From: Bacteroidales bacterium
GTDB lineage: Bacteria > Bacteroidota > Bacteroidia > Bacteroidales > WCHB1-69
Length of the DNA stretch: 61,058 bases
Direction of reading: 5' to 3'
Assembly: GCA_016285145.1 (NCBI GenBank)
Contig: JAEEQE010000013.1
Coordinates: 1-61,058 of the forward strand
In this document: one piece after another, positions 42,141 through 48,360 of the stretch
How positions within the stretch are numbered: position 1 is the first letter of the stretch
Layout of the letters: each line of letters begins with the position of its first letter
Made by a program: the position numbers and the translations under genes
Notes under the pieces: generated by a model
What the model was told of the DNA's origin: nothing
The model's database searches: none
What the model saw: the letters and a program-made list of their open reading frames with translations, nothing else

Positions 42141-42430
42141 GCTATAATGGGTATAATATGGAAAATATAAAACGGGCTATCGATGTGGAATATTGTTGTT
42201 GGTTTAATTTTTACAGTAATATACTTTTGCTACAATAATTTCGAAATTCTGTCAAGTAAGAAAAATAATAAACACCCTTGTTGTCAGTAAGTTTGCGCTG
42301 TTTTGTTCCGTCCAATTCCGGCATTCCACCATGCGTCTGCGCGGGCGGCGTGGGAAACGCACGACGGGAGGTGGTGGGGCTATATGTGCGGGAACGGTTC
42401 ATTGCGGGGGCAAAGGTAGTGATTTTTCTC

Positions 42431-42796: not shown

Positions 42797-43035
42797 CCAA
42801 AACGCCGTAGGCGTTTCATATCTGTAGAAACGCGCGCACACACACATCCTCGCGGCGCGGCAGGCGCGTGCAATGTCTCGAAGAGACATCCTCTCAATAA
42901 CCCCGCATAAGCGAGCGTAGCGAGCGCAATGTGGGGGCTGGGCTGCGCGCCACGCAAGTCGCGGCGCGGCAGGCGCGTGCCACGGAGAACGGGAAGGGGC
43001 CGCCGCGAAACGACGGCACGATAGAAAGGGGCTGG
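42797..43035 (-). repeat. Dispersed GC-rich repeat, copy D (inverted, with a duplicated core)
   Basis: Begins with AAAACGCCGTAGGCGTTTC and ATCTGTAGAAACGCGCGCAC. The GCGGCGCGGCAGGCGCGTG core occurs twice (about 42855 and 42960), separated by an insert with two small hairpins (ATGTCTCGAAGAGACAT; CCCCGCAT...ATGTGGGG). It ends with CCGCCGCGAAACGACGGCAC and GAAAGGGG. It lies directly before the RHS array promoter. Confidence 0.7.
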
Positions 43036-43073
43036 CGCAAAAATAGCCTTTTCACGGTTTTTGAAAAATTCAT

Positions 43074-43081
43074 TACCTTTG
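43074..43081 (+). promoter_or_regulatory. Promoter of the RHS cassette array
   Basis: TACCTTTG then CACCG, 20 bases before ATG 43101. It is the only convincing -7 element I see for the six co-directional genes to 47914. Confidence 0.6.
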
Positions 43082-43100
43082 CACCGTCAAACAACAGGAT

Positions 43101-44012
43101 ATGAGCCAGCGTTTTACATACCACATCCGGCCATCCGCCACCCCTTTTGCGCAGACGCACACCTTCTCCGCAAAAGAAAAGGACTCCGAAACGGGCCTAT
43201 CAGTTACCTCGCTCCGCTCGGTTTCCTCCTTTTCGCTCAGCCAAATCCAAACAAGTTTGGTTTGGCATTCGCTCATGCGTCGGTTTGGCTCACGCTATTA
43301 CAGCTCCGATTTGAGCATTTGGCTCAGCGTCGATCCGATGAGTGACAAATATCCGTCGTTGAGCCCGTATGTTTATTGTGCGGATAATCCTATTGAACTT
43401 GTGGACCCCAATGGGGAGGAGATAGTTCTTTTCGTAAATAAAACCAAATACTCATATAATGGGAAAAACTTTGTAGATAAAGACGGAAATATCGCCTCTT
43501 TCAGACAAAACTCTTTCGAATCCCGCGTTCTTTCTGATTTAAATAAATTATACAATTCAGAAAGCAATATTATACGTGGTAAATTAAATGACATGATGAA
43601 GAGCAAACACCAACATTCTATAGTCCGTAGTACAGTATCTGGGGGCATCGGTTATAACAAAGCCTTGGATACTGATCATGCAGGAAAATATGGTGAAGGT
43701 TCCGATACGGAAATAGGTTATAATCCTTTTGCTACGAAAAGTGTATGTGCTGATGGAGGTTATATATCGTGCGCAACGTTGGCTCATGAATTACTAGGAC
43801 ACGGTTGGAATAACGACCAAGGTCTTCATGAATCTGATAATCATACAACGGAAAATGGCATTAAGTTCGAAGAAGTCAATGCTGTAAATATTCAGAATAA
43901 AGTATTGGTAGAGCATCATCAACTACCACGTTCATTAGTAGGTTCCCCTAATGATGCTAAACAAATCCCAGTAGAATTGATAAACCATTATTATACGACT
44001 AAACCCAAATGA
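43101..44012 (+). CDS. RHS-core/toxin gene 1, metallopeptidase-like C terminus
   Basis: A protein of 303 residues. Residues 22-105 are the end of the RHS repeat-associated core (FSAKEKDSETGL..., RYYSSDLSIWLSVDP, SLSPYVYCADNPIELVDPNG), broken by a 26-residue insert. The variable C terminus has ATLAHELLGHGWNND and, 30 residues on, FEEVNAVNIQNKV. The His-Glu...His and later Glu pattern looks like a zinc-metallopeptidase toxin, although the spacing is HExxxH, not HExxH. It has no signal peptide and no long RHS barrel, so it cannot be delivered alone. It either serves as a recombination donor or is an orphan. An exported protein follows after 10 bases. Confidence 0.7.
   Translation: MSQRFTYHIRPSATPFAQTHTFSAKEKDSETGLSVTSLRSVSSFSLSQIQTSLVWHSLMRRFGSRYYSSDLSIWLSVDPMSDKYPSLSPYVYCADNPIELVDPNGEEIVLFVNKTKYSYNGKNFVDKDGNIASFRQNSFESRVLSDLNKLYNSESNIIRGKLNDMMKSKHQHSIVRSTVSGGIGYNKALDTDHAGKYGEGSDTEIGYNPFATKSVCADGGYISCATLAHELLGHGWNNDQGLHESDNHTTENGIKFEEVNAVNIQNKVLVEHHQLPRSLVGSPNDAKQIPVELINHYYTTKPK
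43155..43420 (+). repeat. RHS core DNA repeat, copy 1 (with 78-bp insert)
   Basis: From ACGCACACCTTCTCCGCAAA to GACCCCAATGGGGAG. Closely related copies lie at 44804-44990 and 46500-46760. Between the copies the toxin parts are unrelated. The 78-bp in-frame insert spans about 43203-43283. Confidence 0.85.
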
Positions 44013-44022
44013 ACAATCATTT

Positions 44023-44604
44023 ATGAAAAATAAAATCAAACTTTATGCTTTATTCACGATAGCTTTGACTGCTTTTGGATCCCTTTCTTTGGTTGCTCAA
44101 CCACTTCTCGGACGGGCTATTTCGTATCATAAATATGTCAGACAAAACAACCATCGCAGCCGAGAAGATGTTGTTAAAAAAGCGGTACTTTCTGATGCTT
44201 TTTTATATGTTACCATAAAGGATGGTGATTTTCAGGGAAAAGTAATGATGTCAAACGGGAATCTCATAAACTATTATCGTAACTGGATACCGGATAGCAT
44301 TCGTCAAAACAATCCCAATTATAAAGATTGGGCCAGCAATTTAATAATCAATGAAATACAAATTGATGTGACCGGCACTAAACTGACATATCATAAAATT
44401 GACAGCATTATAGATTGGAAAGGACCAAAATATAAATTGTTGGAAAAATGCATCGAATTATGCGATAAGTCTATTGTTGACTACAATATGTTAGCTACCT
44501 TGTTTCAGTGGAACATCGTATTGGATACTGTTTACGAGGAGCTCCTATATTTTTATCCCTTAGAATTTAGATCTTATGGGCTGGAGCCCCCTCCATCAAA
44601 ATAA
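44023..44604 (+). CDS. Exported protein, candidate immunity partner of RHS gene 1
   Basis: A protein of 193 residues with a signal peptide (about 1-25, ending SLVAQPLLG). No family recognised. The mature part is basic and AT-coded. It begins 10 bases after the toxin stop, the position of an immunity gene in RHS and CDI systems. An exported immunity protein would fit a toxin acting in the periplasm or at the membrane. That role is inferred from position only. Confidence 0.5.
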   Translation: MKNKIKLYALFTIALTAFGSLSLVAQPLLGRAISYHKYVRQNNHRSREDVVKKAVLSDAFLYVTIKDGDFQGKVMMSNGNLINYYRNWIPDSIRQNNPNYKDWASNLIINEIQIDVTGTKLTYHKIDSIIDWKGPKYKLLEKCIELCDKSIVDYNMLATLFQWNIVLDTVYEELLYFYPLEFRSYGLEPPPSK

Positions 44605-44606
44605 AG

Positions 44607-45599
44607 ATGTTTGTTCCCCGAACATATTATCCGATGATTGCGTCCCTCGCGCCGCCCGCACAAGCGTACACGCCCGCAGGCAGGGCGCAGAGGCGCGGGT
44701 GTAACCAAAAGCCAATAGCTAACGGCCAAAGGCCAATAGCCAAAATCCAACACCCAAATCCCAATCCCCAATTCCCAATAACCTCCCACACCCCTACCCG
44801 CTGGACGCACACCTTCTCCGCAAAAGAGAAGGACACCGAAACCGGCCTATCTTACTTTGGCGCACGCTATTACAGCTCCGATTTGAGCATCTGGCTCAGT
44901 ATGGATCCACAAGCCTCAAAATATCCCTCTTTAAGTCCTTATGTTTATTGTGCGAACAACCCGATTAAGTTGGTTGATCCGAATGGGGAAGATTGGTATG
45001 AAAAGGACGGCGAGATGCATTACACCACAGAGCATACTAGTCAAAAAGCATTTAAAGAATCAGGTATAGAGGGGGAGTATAAAGGAAAAACATATACAAA
45101 AGACGGGACATACTATAGCCTTTTCGGTGACAAAATAAAAGCGAATTCATTAAAAGGGAAGTTGACAATAAAAATTGATGAAGCATTTGACAAATATGCA
45201 AACTATCTAAAAAAATGTGAACAAACAGAGGGCACCTATCCCGAGTATCAAAGTTCAGATTACACCAATTTTAATGATATAATAAGCTACAACGATAAAT
45301 TTGGTACCACTTATGAAAATGTCCATGATGAAGATCCGAAAACAGGTGCAACTTTAAGATACGCATATGGTTCAACTATTAGATTTACTGTGACAGGAAC
45401 ACGAGATAAAATGTTTGGTCGTTTTAGGGGATTTTCAACAGGGAATAGTCAAACAACATTCGGAAGTGGAATGTTGGCGAAAACAGGTTATAATATTTAT
45501 ATTGTAAATGGGAAGAATAAAATAGTTGGCCTTACATTTAGCCAAAAAAACTTTAATGCTTTTAGAAATCATTTTAACAAACTTTATGGTCTAAAATAA
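44607..45599 (+). CDS. RHS-core/toxin gene 2, C terminus of unknown function
   Basis: A protein of 330 residues if translated from ATG 44607. Residues 1-65 are encoded by the GC-rich and filler DNA (e.g. NQKPIANGQRPIAK), so the real start is uncertain. Residues 68-128 are the intact RHS core (FSAKEKDTETGLSYFGARYY... LVDPNGEDW). The C terminus from about 130 is AT-rich with no family I know; it contains ATLRYAYGSTIRFTVTGTRD and FSTGNSQTTFGSGMLAKTGY. It starts two bases after the previous stop and is followed after 10 bases by another exported protein. Confidence 0.6.
   Translation: MFVPRTYYPMIASLAPPAQAYTPAGRAQRRGCNQKPIANGQRPIAKIQHPNPNPQFPITSHTPTRWTHTFSAKEKDTETGLSYFGARYYSSDLSIWLSMDPQASKYPSLSPYVYCANNPIKLVDPNGEDWYEKDGEMHYTTEHTSQKAFKESGIEGEYKGKTYTKDGTYYSLFGDKIKANSLKGKLTIKIDEAFDKYANYLKKCEQTEGTYPEYQSSDYTNFNDIISYNDKFGTTYENVHDEDPKTGATLRYAYGSTIRFTVTGTRDKMFGRFRGFSTGNSQTTFGSGMLAKTGYNIYIVNGKNKIVGLTFSQKNFNAFRNHFNKLYGLK
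44700..44790. repeat. Filler inside the reading frame of RHS gene 2
   Basis: Words CCAATAGC, CCAAAGGCCAATAGCC, CCAAATCCC and CCAATTCCC follow one another just before the core. They give the repetitive peptide QKPIANGQRPIAK. Confidence 0.55.
44804..44990 (+). repeat. RHS core DNA repeat, copy 2 (without insert)
   Basis: Same core as at 43155 and 46500 but with the normal GGCCTATCTTACTTTGGCGC junction, that is, no 78-bp insert. It is the reference form for defining the insert. Confidence 0.85.
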
Positions 45600-45609
45600 A
45601 AACGATATC

Positions 45610-46347
45610 ATGAAAAAAATCTTTCAATTGTTGCTGATTATTTTTCTCGTCAACTACAGTTTCTCTCAAGAAAATAGAATGCTGTCGTACAAAGAGATGA
45701 TGAAGATGGATTCTGTTTTCAATAATGAGATTCAAAATCATTTGTATTTAGCTTCGTATGAATACTATTATGCTTACTTTCAATTTCCTTCAAATATTGA
45801 CACTTTTTTCAGTTTCGCTTTCAAAAGTTTATCTATCTATACAAAACGACATCCTTTTCCAAAAAATATTCGGCAATTATTAACGGACAACAAGTTTTCT
45901 TTTTCATTGAGTTACAATCGGGATACATTAGCTGTTTTATATGAGGATATGGTGTTTTTATCATTTGTCAAACCATTTTCATGTGCGGAGTTCAATGAAA
46001 TTGGTTCTTATGCCGGTTTTATAAAAAACGGCACCATTTGTAATGGCAATTACGCAAGCAAGTTAGAAAACCTTTTTTGTCATAAAATATGGAAATTATA
46101 TCATCATTCTGTTTCAGATTTGTCTGGTCATCATATTATAAGTGATGAGAGCCCCGCTTTAGTTCATATAGGTATGACATACGATTTTTTTCAAGACTCG
46201 TTAATTGTTCACAATATTTGTCCTTTAACTGCAGAATTATACCAACCATATTATACATCCTTAAAAAAGTTGTCTATACATTTTTGTCGCAAATATGGAT
46301 ATGATGGTTTGTTTTTCTCAGCTCCATTTATTACAGAGAAAAAATAA
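45610..46347 (+). CDS. Exported protein, candidate immunity partner of RHS gene 2
   Basis: A protein of 245 residues with a signal peptide (MKKIFQLLLIIFLVNYSFSQ) and very high Phe/Tyr content (ASYEYYYAYFQFPSN). No family recognised. It begins 10 bases after the RHS gene 2 stop and 27 bases before the next RHS gene. AT content is high, as for the toxin part before it. The immunity role is inferred from position. Confidence 0.5.
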   Translation: MKKIFQLLLIIFLVNYSFSQENRMLSYKEMMKMDSVFNNEIQNHLYLASYEYYYAYFQFPSNIDTFFSFAFKSLSIYTKRHPFPKNIRQLLTDNKFSFSLSYNRDTLAVLYEDMVFLSFVKPFSCAEFNEIGSYAGFIKNGTICNGNYASKLENLFCHKIWKLYHHSVSDLSGHHIISDESPALVHIGMTYDFFQDSLIVHNICPLTAELYQPYYTSLKKLSIHFCRKYGYDGLFFSAPFITEKK

Positions 46348-46374
46348 GTATGAGCTAAAACCTACACCTTCGCC

Positions 46375-47334
46375 ATGGAGCTTGAATATGACAGTCGGAA
46401 AAATTGCGCAAGCCGGATGAAAAGAGAACAATTCTTTTCCGGGGCACACTTTGCCATCTCCCTTCCAACTGTCAGCTGTAACCTGTCACCTGTCCCCCGG
46501 ACTTTCACCTTCTCCGCAAAAGAACGCGACGCAGAAACCGACCTATCAGTTACCTCGCTCCGCTCGGTTTCCTCCTTTTCGCTCAGCCAAATCCAAACAA
46601 GTTTGGTTTGGCATTCGCTCATGCGTCGGTTTGGCTCACGGTATTACAGCAGTGATTTAAGCATCTGGCTCAGCGTCGATCCGCAGGCCTCGAAATATCC
46701 CTCCTTAAGCCCGTATGTTTATTGCGCGAATAACCCGGTGAAGTTGGTGGATCCAGAGGGTATGGAAATTGGAGGACATCCCCAAAGGAAAAAACATAAT
46801 AATACGCCTCCATTTTTAAAATATATTGGATTCTCTGTAAGACATCCTTCTGCTGCTATCAATATAGGGAAAGTAACACATAATTCCTCTAATATTTCTA
46901 CAGTTGCAACTAGGTTTGCAACTAGAGGGGAAATTCTTTCGGGTTCTGCAGAAAATCAAGATGACCGGGGAAGCCAAAATGGAGCATTTAGACACACTTT
47001 GTGGCAAGCTGCTATCACCTCAATGTATGGAGAAAGTATAGCAGAACAAGCCGGAAATGCTCATGAAAAAAATCCATCAGTGGACTTGTCCCAACGTTAT
47101 TTTTCGAATTTAGATGAAGCTGATCAAGTCGTTGATTTGTTAAACAATCAAATAGGAAGAAGAATAGGTAAACAAAATATGGGTGCCAATATGAATGAGT
47201 TAGCTCAAATCGTTCTTTCGGAATTCGTATCAAATGGTTTATACACTGCCACACAAATGGCTGAAGACAAGTATGTAATAGCGTTAACTAGAATTCCTGA
47301 ATCAAAGTATATTCAATTAAAAAACATAGTTTGA
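46375..47334 (+). CDS. RHS-core/toxin gene 3, DUF6973-like C terminus
   Basis: A protein of 319 residues. About 43 leading residues of unclear origin precede the RHS core (FTFSAKERDAETDL... RYYSSDLSIWLSVDP), which carries the same 26-residue insert as gene 1. The C terminus has SQNGAFRHTLWQAAITSMYG, EQAGNAHEKNP and DLLNNQIGRRIG. The R-H-x-x-W, A-x-x-H-E and N-N-x-x-G-R blocks resemble the DUF6973 family of toxin-associated domains. The activity is unknown. The next gene, a lipoprotein, is 130 bases downstream. Confidence 0.65.
   Translation: MELEYDSRKNCASRMKREQFFSGAHFAISLPTVSCNLSPVPRTFTFSAKERDAETDLSVTSLRSVSSFSLSQIQTSLVWHSLMRRFGSRYYSSDLSIWLSVDPQASKYPSLSPYVYCANNPVKLVDPEGMEIGGHPQRKKHNNTPPFLKYIGFSVRHPSAAINIGKVTHNSSNISTVATRFATRGEILSGSAENQDDRGSQNGAFRHTLWQAAITSMYGESIAEQAGNAHEKNPSVDLSQRYFSNLDEADQVVDLLNNQIGRRIGKQNMGANMNELAQIVLSEFVSNGLYTATQMAEDKYVIALTRIPESKYIQLKNIV
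46500..46760 (+). repeat. RHS core DNA repeat, copy 3 (with 78-bp insert)
   Basis: Core as at 43155, with the insert at about 46549-46628. The inserted bases are the same as those in copy 1 over the whole stretch I compared, while the flanking core has several differences. Confidence 0.85.
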
Positions 47335-47464
47335 AAATCTTAATTGCTATGGAAGAACGCCAAAAGAGCAAGAAAATATTAATCAACAGAACAAAGAGAA
47401 ATAGAAAGATATCAATAAACATAGAATGGAATACAAGTAATAAGTAAATAGGATAGACATTATT

Positions 47465-47914
47465 ATGAAAAAAATCACTGTGACATCATTGGTATGCATT
47501 ATTACAATGCTGATAGGGTGTTCTCAACCACGAGATATAGATCGTGCTGTCTCTCACGCATATAAACAATGCGTTAGAAGCAACAACTATATAATAGATT
47601 TTTCTACATTGTTGCCTTTTGAATGGGACACTATGTGCTATTATTCAGGTGCATATGATTTGGAATACATACTTGAAGATCTACATAAAGACCTGCAAGC
47701 AATAACATATTCCGATGTTGGTCCAAAGATCTATTTTCTACATCAAGGTCATATTGTTTATCAAAAGGGATGGTTCCCATATCCGGAACCGGAAAAGAAT
47801 ACCATATACTTTGACACTCCTCTTAAAAAATTTAGAGTTGGCAAAGCTAATGCAAGATTTGCAGTAGCAAAAGTTGGTGATTGTTATAGTTTATCGTTTA
47901 TACAAGAAGAATAG
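47465..47914 (+). CDS. Lipoprotein, candidate immunity partner of RHS gene 3
   Basis: A protein of 149 residues with a lipobox (IITMLIGCSQ, Cys19), so it is exported and lipid-anchored. The mature part contains FEWDTMCYYSGAYDLEYI, a pattern I have met in small Bacteroidota lipoproteins near toxin genes, but without an assigned function. It is the last of the six co-directional genes of the array. The 130-base gap before it is AT-rich and contains no clear promoter. Confidence 0.5.
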   Translation: MKKITVTSLVCIITMLIGCSQPRDIDRAVSHAYKQCVRSNNYIIDFSTLLPFEWDTMCYYSGAYDLEYILEDLHKDLQAITYSDVGPKIYFLHQGHIVYQKGWFPYPEPEKNTIYFDTPLKKFRVGKANARFAVAKVGDCYSLSFIQEE

Positions 47915-48099
47915 TGTTTGTTTTCTTTGATATTGGATTGCTTTTCTATTCCTATCCGTAACAAACTCTGAACCATGTATGCCGTATGTTATAGGTTAGT
48001 GTCAGTGAAATAGTTCTCTCAAGGTGACAAAATTGTGGTTTTCTTATGCTGTCCCATACCATGACGGGCATTAGTCCATCTATGCCAAAACATCAGTCT
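47915..48099. other. Intergenic spacer after the RHS array
   Basis: No promoter, terminator or coding signal seen. It ends at the start of the tape-measure remnant. Confidence 0.3.
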
Positions 48100-48228
48100 A
48101 TGGCAAAGAGCAGCACCCGCAGGGTAATCATCTACATCAACGGCAAGAAGGCGGAGGTCTTCATTAAGCAGATACGTTCCAAGATGAACAAGTTTGTCAA
48201 CGAGCAGAACCGCAAGGTCATCAGATAA
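48100..48228 (+). pseudogene. Phage tape-measure N-terminal remnant, right copy
   Basis: A frame of 42 residues from ATG 48100: MAKSSTRRVIIYINGKKAEV, then IKQIRSKMNKFVNEQNRK. The R-x-V-x-I-Y-I-N-G-K opening and following coiled coil match the start of Bacteroidetes phage tail tape-measure proteins, which normally exceed 600 residues. It is cut at the same place as the left copy at window position 50 and joins the same dispersed repeat. No other phage gene is nearby. Confidence 0.6.
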
Positions 48229-48360
48229 GACACCTCTTTTCAGCGTGCCGTCGTTTCGCGGCGGAATCATCCCGTTCTTCGTGGCACACGCCTTCTGCGC
48301 CGCGATATTGTGTGCACACGCACGTTTCTACAGATATGCAACGCCTACGGCGTTAGGAGT
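48229..48360 (+). repeat. Dispersed GC-rich repeat, copy E
   Basis: Same orientation and block order as copy A: CTTTTCAGCGTGCCGTCG, TTTCGCGGCGG, the CGCCTTCTGCGCCGCG core, and TTTCTACAGATATGCAACGCC with a GGCGTT end. It follows the tape-measure remnant exactly as copy A does. Confidence 0.75.

What the first reader, a model, noticed from the sequence alone, without database searches (positions are those of the whole stretch)
43074..47914. Three RHS-core/toxin genes with exported partners in one tight array
Behind a single promoter lie six genes in alternating order: RHS-core plus unique C terminus, then an exported protein, three times. Gaps are 10, 2, 10, 27 and 130 bases. Each RHS gene keeps only the last 60-80 residues of the core and lacks the barrel and any export signal. 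All three partners have a signal peptide or lipobox. This looks like a store of C-terminal toxin-immunity modules for a full RHS gene elsewhere, or a self-contained family that reuses the core as a cap. Orphan RHS modules are known in enterobacteria; immunity proteins that are all exported would point to toxins acting outside the cytoplasm.
Basis: partly seen in the sequence, partly recalled or inferred. Interest (0 to 1): 0.72.

Follow-up and report, generated by a model that had tools for sequence, protein, structure and literature searches.

The report
Orphan RHS toxin-immunity cassette array
Three spare toxin tails, each with its own exported protector protein, sit in one small operon of a gut-type Bacteroidales bacterium; they belong to a genus-wide stock of swappable cassettes, a known kind of system with some unusual features here.

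Summary
The array is real: six intact genes, the stated gaps, one Bacteroidetes-type promoter site. It is one of several orphan RHS arrays in this genome: 27 core hits, one in a long frame, and that one has a different core. Full-length carriers (2,519-3,126-residue frames) sharing the array's core occur in 7 sister genomes; here the likely carrier is cut by a contig end. Of 12 cassette pairs compared, 7 share blocks starting at the core edge and 2 part at its end. Tails look selected. Partners look exported in 86 of 92 cases, the RHS orphans in 4 of 80. Tail 1 is an M91-like zincin, tail 3 matches a Bacteroides fragilis T6SS effector; 24 of 101 tails have HExxH. Best reading: an expressed orphan module array against envelope-acting toxins, an immunity bank and slow reservoir; expression and protection are inferred. 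Not in the finding: many orphans have their own start element, a tyrosine recombinase lies divergent to orphans in 9 other loci, and RHS genes 1 and 3 carry an 82-bp hairpin insert. New variant of a known kind.

The parts
43033..43039 (+). TGGCGCA box upstream of the head promoter; 2-3 copies stand in the recombinase-head interval of six own or relatives' loci
   Evidence: function not tested
43074..43081 (+). TACCTTTG, Bacteroidetes-type -7 promoter element, 27 nt before the start codon of RHS gene 1
   Evidence: same spacing (-26/-27) in 14 of the 80 closed orphans
43101..44012 (+). RHS gene 1: 21-aa leader, core 43164-43415, toxin tail 43416-44009 (M91-like zincin)
43202..43283 (+). 82-bp in-frame insert with a hairpin in the core of RHS gene 1
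44023..44604 (+). partner 1, signal-peptide-like N terminus, predicted immunity
   Evidence: homologue beside the homologous tail in L099
44607..45599 (+). RHS gene 2: leader, core 44814-44987, toxin tail 44988-45596 of no known family
   Evidence: 54% identical homologue in L091
45610..46347 (+). partner 2, signal-peptide-like N terminus, predicted immunity
46375..47334 (+). RHS gene 3: leader, core 46510-46761, toxin tail 46762-47331 (DUF6973)
46548..46629 (+). second copy of the 82-bp insert, identical to the first, in the core of RHS gene 3
47465..47914 (+). partner 3, lipobox protein, predicted immunity
42801..43031 (.). left flanking dispersed repeat (42 hits in the genome)
48233..48354 (.). 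right flanking dispersed repeat, inverted relative to the left one

Best explanation
The array is an operon of three orphan RHS toxin-tail/immunity cassettes. Each cassette is a piece (core, variable tail, exported immunity protein) of the kind that recombination at the conserved core moves between RHS loci. One promoter transcribes the operon, so the three immunity proteins reach the envelope and should protect the cell from neighbours whose full-length RHS carriers bear such tails. The mini-RHS proteins have no export signal; because the tails act outside the cytoplasm they can be made without harm, and they stay available for rare recombination back onto a carrier. Shown by sequence: anatomy, carriers in the genus, breakpoints, low dN/dS of tails, export-type partners. 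Inferred: expression, protection, site of action, and delivery by the carrier, perhaps through the type IX system.
For: 27 core hits in the genome, 26 in short frames, some cut by contig ends. Of 12 cassette pairs that I chose for similarity, 7 share a block that starts 4-9 nt before the core, 3 start inside the core right after the insert that one partner carries, and 2 share leader and core and part 5-9 nt past the core end. dN/dS 0.10-0.44 in 8 of 11 tail pairs; dS saturated in two, tail 1 among them, one pair dropped. 86 of 92 partners with hydrophobic N terminus against 106 of 234 other ORFs and 4 of 80 orphans. 24 of 101 tails with HExxH, 0.75 expected, at most 4 in 500 shuffles; Pfam names JAB toxin in 10, M91 in 6. 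Tail 3 matches chain 9uu0_A, a B. fragilis T6SS effector fusion, at 1.8e-35. Pairs kept: tail 1 and partner 1 in L099, tail 2 and partner 2 in L091. Precedents: functional orphan modules and expressed orphan immunity (passages in PMC3150448); orphans transcribed in S. alvi (passage in PMC5727410).
Against: No transcript or protein data. Of the own carrier only 28 codons at the end of contig C5 are in the assembly. None of the three window tails was found on a full-length carrier in the loci held, nor tails 1 and 2 in 393 genomes of the order; tail 3 was not searched beyond the loci held. Same-genome cores are only slightly closer than cores of different genomes (0.789 against 0.762), and in G013 the carrier is nearer to foreign orphans (0.790 against 0.748). 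Tail 1 has a zinc-peptidase-like motif of unusual spacing in all three close homologues, so its activity cannot be assumed. Some orphans elsewhere are decayed or cut, as plain remnants would be. Low dN/dS could date from time spent on a carrier.
Confidence: 0.62

Rival explanations
1. Passive remnants of C-terminal displacement: tails pushed off a carrier and shunted downstream, now drifting, with no present function.
For: This is the published model for enterobacterial rhs (passages in PMC2935791). Decayed neighbours exist: a start element on the minus strand at 42378-42427, cores stopped after RYY in L043, L138, L129.
Against: All six window ORFs are intact; tails of orphan pairs between species have low dN/dS; 14 of 80 closed orphans keep the promoter element at -26/-27; 48 of 80 have the start element against 27 of 315 other ORFs, a control that contains orphan pieces.
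Confidence: 0.2
2. Integron-like store: the tyrosine recombinase beside array heads moves cassettes into and out of the head position.
For: Recombinase divergent to an orphan in 9 loci: own C5 (L039), L082, L099, L106, L109, L112, L119, L120, L121. Start-to-start distance 228-244 bp in 7, 284 in L119, 375 in L120. TGGCGCA two or three times in the interval of the six loci looked at, and once upstream of the window head.
Against: The recombinase is truncated in 5 of the 9; 8 of the 14 heads aligned, the window's included, have none beside them in the stretch held; breakpoints sit at the core, which homologous recombination explains; no recombination site was shown.
Confidence: 0.12
3. Self-contained secreted mini-RHS toxins: the leader and core replace the barrel as an export or folding device.
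For: A shared start motif, about M-x-x-x-(R)-T/P-Y-x-P, in many orphans and in orphans of two other RHS core types.
Against: Only 4 of 80 closed orphans have a hydrophobic N terminus; the leader before the core varies from 3 to 268 residues and much of it looks by eye like translated repeat.
Confidence: 0.06

Closest known systems
Orphan rhs-CT/rhsI and cdiA-CT/cdiI modules of enterobacteria (PMC3150448, PMC3967940, PMC2935791; passages seen)
   Same: Core fragment plus variable toxin tail plus immunity gene, in tandem arrays, exchanged at the core boundary
   Different: Those orphans mostly lack translation starts; the passages I saw do not speak of exported immunity. Here many orphans have starts, the head has a promoter element, and partners nearly all look exported
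Salmonella rhs orphan expressed from an internal promoter as a toxin-antitoxin module (PMC7043789; passages seen)
   Same: Orphan tail and immunity expressed inside the cell
   Different: Toxin-antitoxin action inside the cell there; here the immunity looks exported
Snodgrassella alvi RHS loci of bee gut (PMC5727410; passages seen)
   Same: Many orphans per genome, expressed orphans, an integrase-like gene near RHS genes
   Different: T6SS delivery there; here carriers are SpvB/TcB-like with an upstream type IX sorting-domain protein, and the recombinase has a fixed divergent place beside orphans
TANFOR polymorphic toxins of Bacteroidetes (PMC7073777; passages seen)
   Same: Polymorphic toxin encoded beside type IX CTD proteins
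   Different: Here the carrier is of the SpvB/RHS kind; no search for a TANFOR model was made; orphan arrays
Imm65 lipoprotein immunity of Tox-JAB-1 (PMC3482391; passages seen)
   Same: Exported immunity in Bacteroidetes; JAB toxin tails occur in this set
   Different: Called exceptional in 2012; here 86 of 92 partners look exported. Whether any partner here is Imm65 was not tested

Membership tests
Orphan RHS toxin-immunity module | RHS core fragment without delivery part, fused to a variable tail | tested here: met
   TIGR03696 over the later part of the core only, proteins of 303-330 aa
Orphan RHS toxin-immunity module | Full-length RHS gene with the same core in the same lineage | tested here: met
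   7 genus genomes with core-bearing frames of 2,519 residues or more; the own one is cut by a contig end
Orphan RHS toxin-immunity module | Linked immunity gene that travels with the tail | tested here: met
   Pairs 1 and 2 recur in L099 and L091; pair 3 has no homologue in the loci held
Orphan RHS toxin-immunity module | Tail toxic and neutralised by its partner | not testable with these tools
   needs bench work
Orphan RHS toxin-immunity module | Same tail found on a full-length carrier (said to be frequent, not strictly defining) | tested here: not met
   Not for the window tails in the loci held, nor for tails 1 and 2 in 393 genomes; five orphan-carrier tail matches exist elsewhere in the set
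Integron | Integrase gene beside the array head | tested here: not met
   Not beside the window array; present in 9 other loci
Integron | Recombination site at each cassette end | tested here: inconclusive
   TGGCGCA repeats and the 82-bp hairpin insert are candidates only
Type IX secreted toxin | Type IX translocon in the genome | tested here: met
   SprA, 2458.6 bits; other components not searched
Type IX secreted toxin | Sorting domain on the toxin itself | tested here: not met
   No sorting domain in carrier L106, which ends in a TseH tail; TIGR04183 is on the protein upstream (31 bits, cut-off 23; Pfam model 23.1 bits, under its cut-off 27)

The most novel reading that the evidence does not exclude
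A dedicated, integron-like toxin-cassette system: a tyrosine recombinase encoded just upstream of the carrier genes acts on the head interval and on the RHS core to load cassettes, each a start-capped toxin tail with an exported immunity protein; the hairpin insert at one fixed core site marks or blocks such a site.
Probability: 0.12. Interest if true: 0.82.

Novelty: new variant of a known kind. Interest (0 to 1): 0.52.

Why it matters
If the array is expressed, it shows a gut bacterium keeping many ready immunity proteins in its envelope, and it offers a reason why orphan toxins can be transcribed safely: they act only outside the cytoplasm. Jackson et al. [quoted passage not shown] a recombinase in a fixed place beside RHS orphans makes the question of how tails are moved directly testable.

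Full report
Observation. The six genes stand as described, with gaps 10, 2, 10, 27 and 130. The RHS genes hit TIGR03696 with the later part of the core and no barrel family. A TAnnTTTG site lies 27 nt before RHS gene 1 and none lies within 120 nt of the other starts. The finding missed one feature: RHS genes 1 and 3 carry the same 82-bp insert in the core.

The genome. TIGR03696 gives 27 hits in the 2.73-Mb draft, 25 over the cut-off; 26 lie in frames of 90 to 575 residues and one in a frame of 2,041. Several lie at contig ends, where the assembly breaks. The long one (C38) has a signal-peptide-like start, an Ntox23 tail and another core. Contig C5 holds a head orphan, a tyrosine recombinase, a protein with a type IX-like end, and then 28 codons of a carrier start before the contig ends. 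A search with 871 residues of a relative's carrier finds only a weak match in C38. So the own carrier is there in part but cannot be read.

The genus. With pre-core and core as query, 45 of 60 genomes match, own included; 33 of the 36 of this genus. Seven of them have core-bearing frames of 2,519 to 3,126 residues; an eighth (G001) is cut before the core. Carrier L106 shows SpvB, FG-GAP, TcdB-mid, RHS and a TseH tail. In the carriers whose upstream side I hold (L102, L106, L110, L112, L114, and L118 for its start) a protein of 506-542 residues with a similar C-terminal end precedes it; I scanned only the L106 one, where TIGR04183 is over its cut-off and the Pfam model under its own. SprA is present in the own genome.

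Cassettes. A pattern collected 105 RHS genes from 52 stretches and the window. Tails are mostly 190-225 residues. Twelve pairs were compared at DNA level: 7 share a block that starts 4-9 nt before the core and runs through the tail, 3 start inside the core after the insert, and 2 share leader and core but not the tail (L099/L109 and L036/L106). Some tails are nearly identical between species (98.6% and 100%). Five orphan-carrier tail matches exist, the best at 44.7%. dN/dS is 0.10-0.44 in 8 of 11 tail pairs.

Partners. Of 92 partners that my rule found, 86 have a hydrophobic N terminus, against 106 of 234 other ORFs of 140 residues or more, a loose control that contains spurious ORFs. In the own genome it is 18 of 19. 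By the same rule 4 of 80 closed RHS orphans have one.

Tails. Of 101 tails (7 of them on carriers), 24 have HExxH against 0.75 in shuffles. Pfam names JAB toxin in 10, M91 in 6 and fourteen other families once or twice, Ntox21 and Ntox44 among them. Tail 1 is M91-like (1.4e-6); its model is confident and zincin-like, but its motif has unusual spacing in all three close homologues. A distant M91 match (4.9e-5) stands behind what looks by eye like another RHS core in another family, followed by a lipobox-type protein. Tail 2 has a homologue only in G004 among the loci held and none but itself in 393 genomes of the order. Tail 3 is DUF6973 and matches the B. fragilis T6SS effector chain 9uu0_A over residues 23-188; I saw no paper on that structure among those listed.

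Starts. In 14 of 80 closed orphans TAnnTTTG stands 26 or 27 nt before the ATG. Inner orphans often start with an element ending in ATG and a CATAT box; 48 of 80 have the ATG-box spacing, against 27 of 315 other ORFs. A sequence model built from 32 examples, 7 of them from this genome, was run on the own genome. Its best 9 hits are 5 of those examples, three further orphan or decayed-orphan starts (C58, C4, C61), and one leader without a core (C39). Below about 28 bits come other places and then plain promoters, so the element is not proved exclusive to RHS orphans. RHS gene 2 keeps the ATG-box part without the promoter; RHS gene 3 does not show it.

Recombinase. It is a Phage_integrase protein. 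Nine loci have it divergent to an orphan, at 228-244 bp in seven; five of the nine are truncated. The window array has none.

Insert. 17 hits in 10 of 60 genomes, all in this genus. Of 14 copies read in context, 13 sit at the same place in an RHS core and one weak match (L136) does not; 8 of the 13 leave the core open, 5 are followed by a stop, a truncation or a frameshift. The central inverted repeat pairs in 94.4% of cells; 1 of 500 shuffles reaches this and the covariation score, but 298 reach the two pairs changed on both sides and 494 the number of further pair types, so support is moderate. One old insertion spread by core exchange would explain the fixed site.

Verdict. Ordinary in kind, unusual in three respects: nearly all immunity looks exported, many orphans are capped with starts, and a recombinase stands beside orphans in nine loci. 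The seven papers cited were read as passages only; all others were seen only in listings.

Noticed in passing
window 42378-42427, minus strand: Decayed start element of another orphan (reading MNRSRTYSPTTSRRAFPTPP), divergent from the array head.
   Followed up: partly
window 48046-48228: Small ORF holding MAKSSTRRVIIYINGKK; a like reading stands in L101, and ORFs that I take for its other strand stand near array ends in L036 and L103. It reminds me of a phage tape-measure start, recalled only.
   Followed up: no
L035:4051-4497: 148-aa protein with a YD-like stretch and a type IX sorting domain (TIGR04183, 52.4 bits) directly before the C38 full-length RHS gene.
   Followed up: partly
L032:2032-8436: Second orphan array type (core with TDHLGNVM), with partners that look exported by eye.
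   Followed up: no
L043, L138, L129: In three genomes a core with the insert stops after RYY and is followed by an exported-looking partner: immunity-only cassettes.
   Followed up: partly
L108:4406-5077: Homologue of partner 2 (46%) with no homologue of tail 2 in the 6 kb held: orphan immunity.
   Followed up: no
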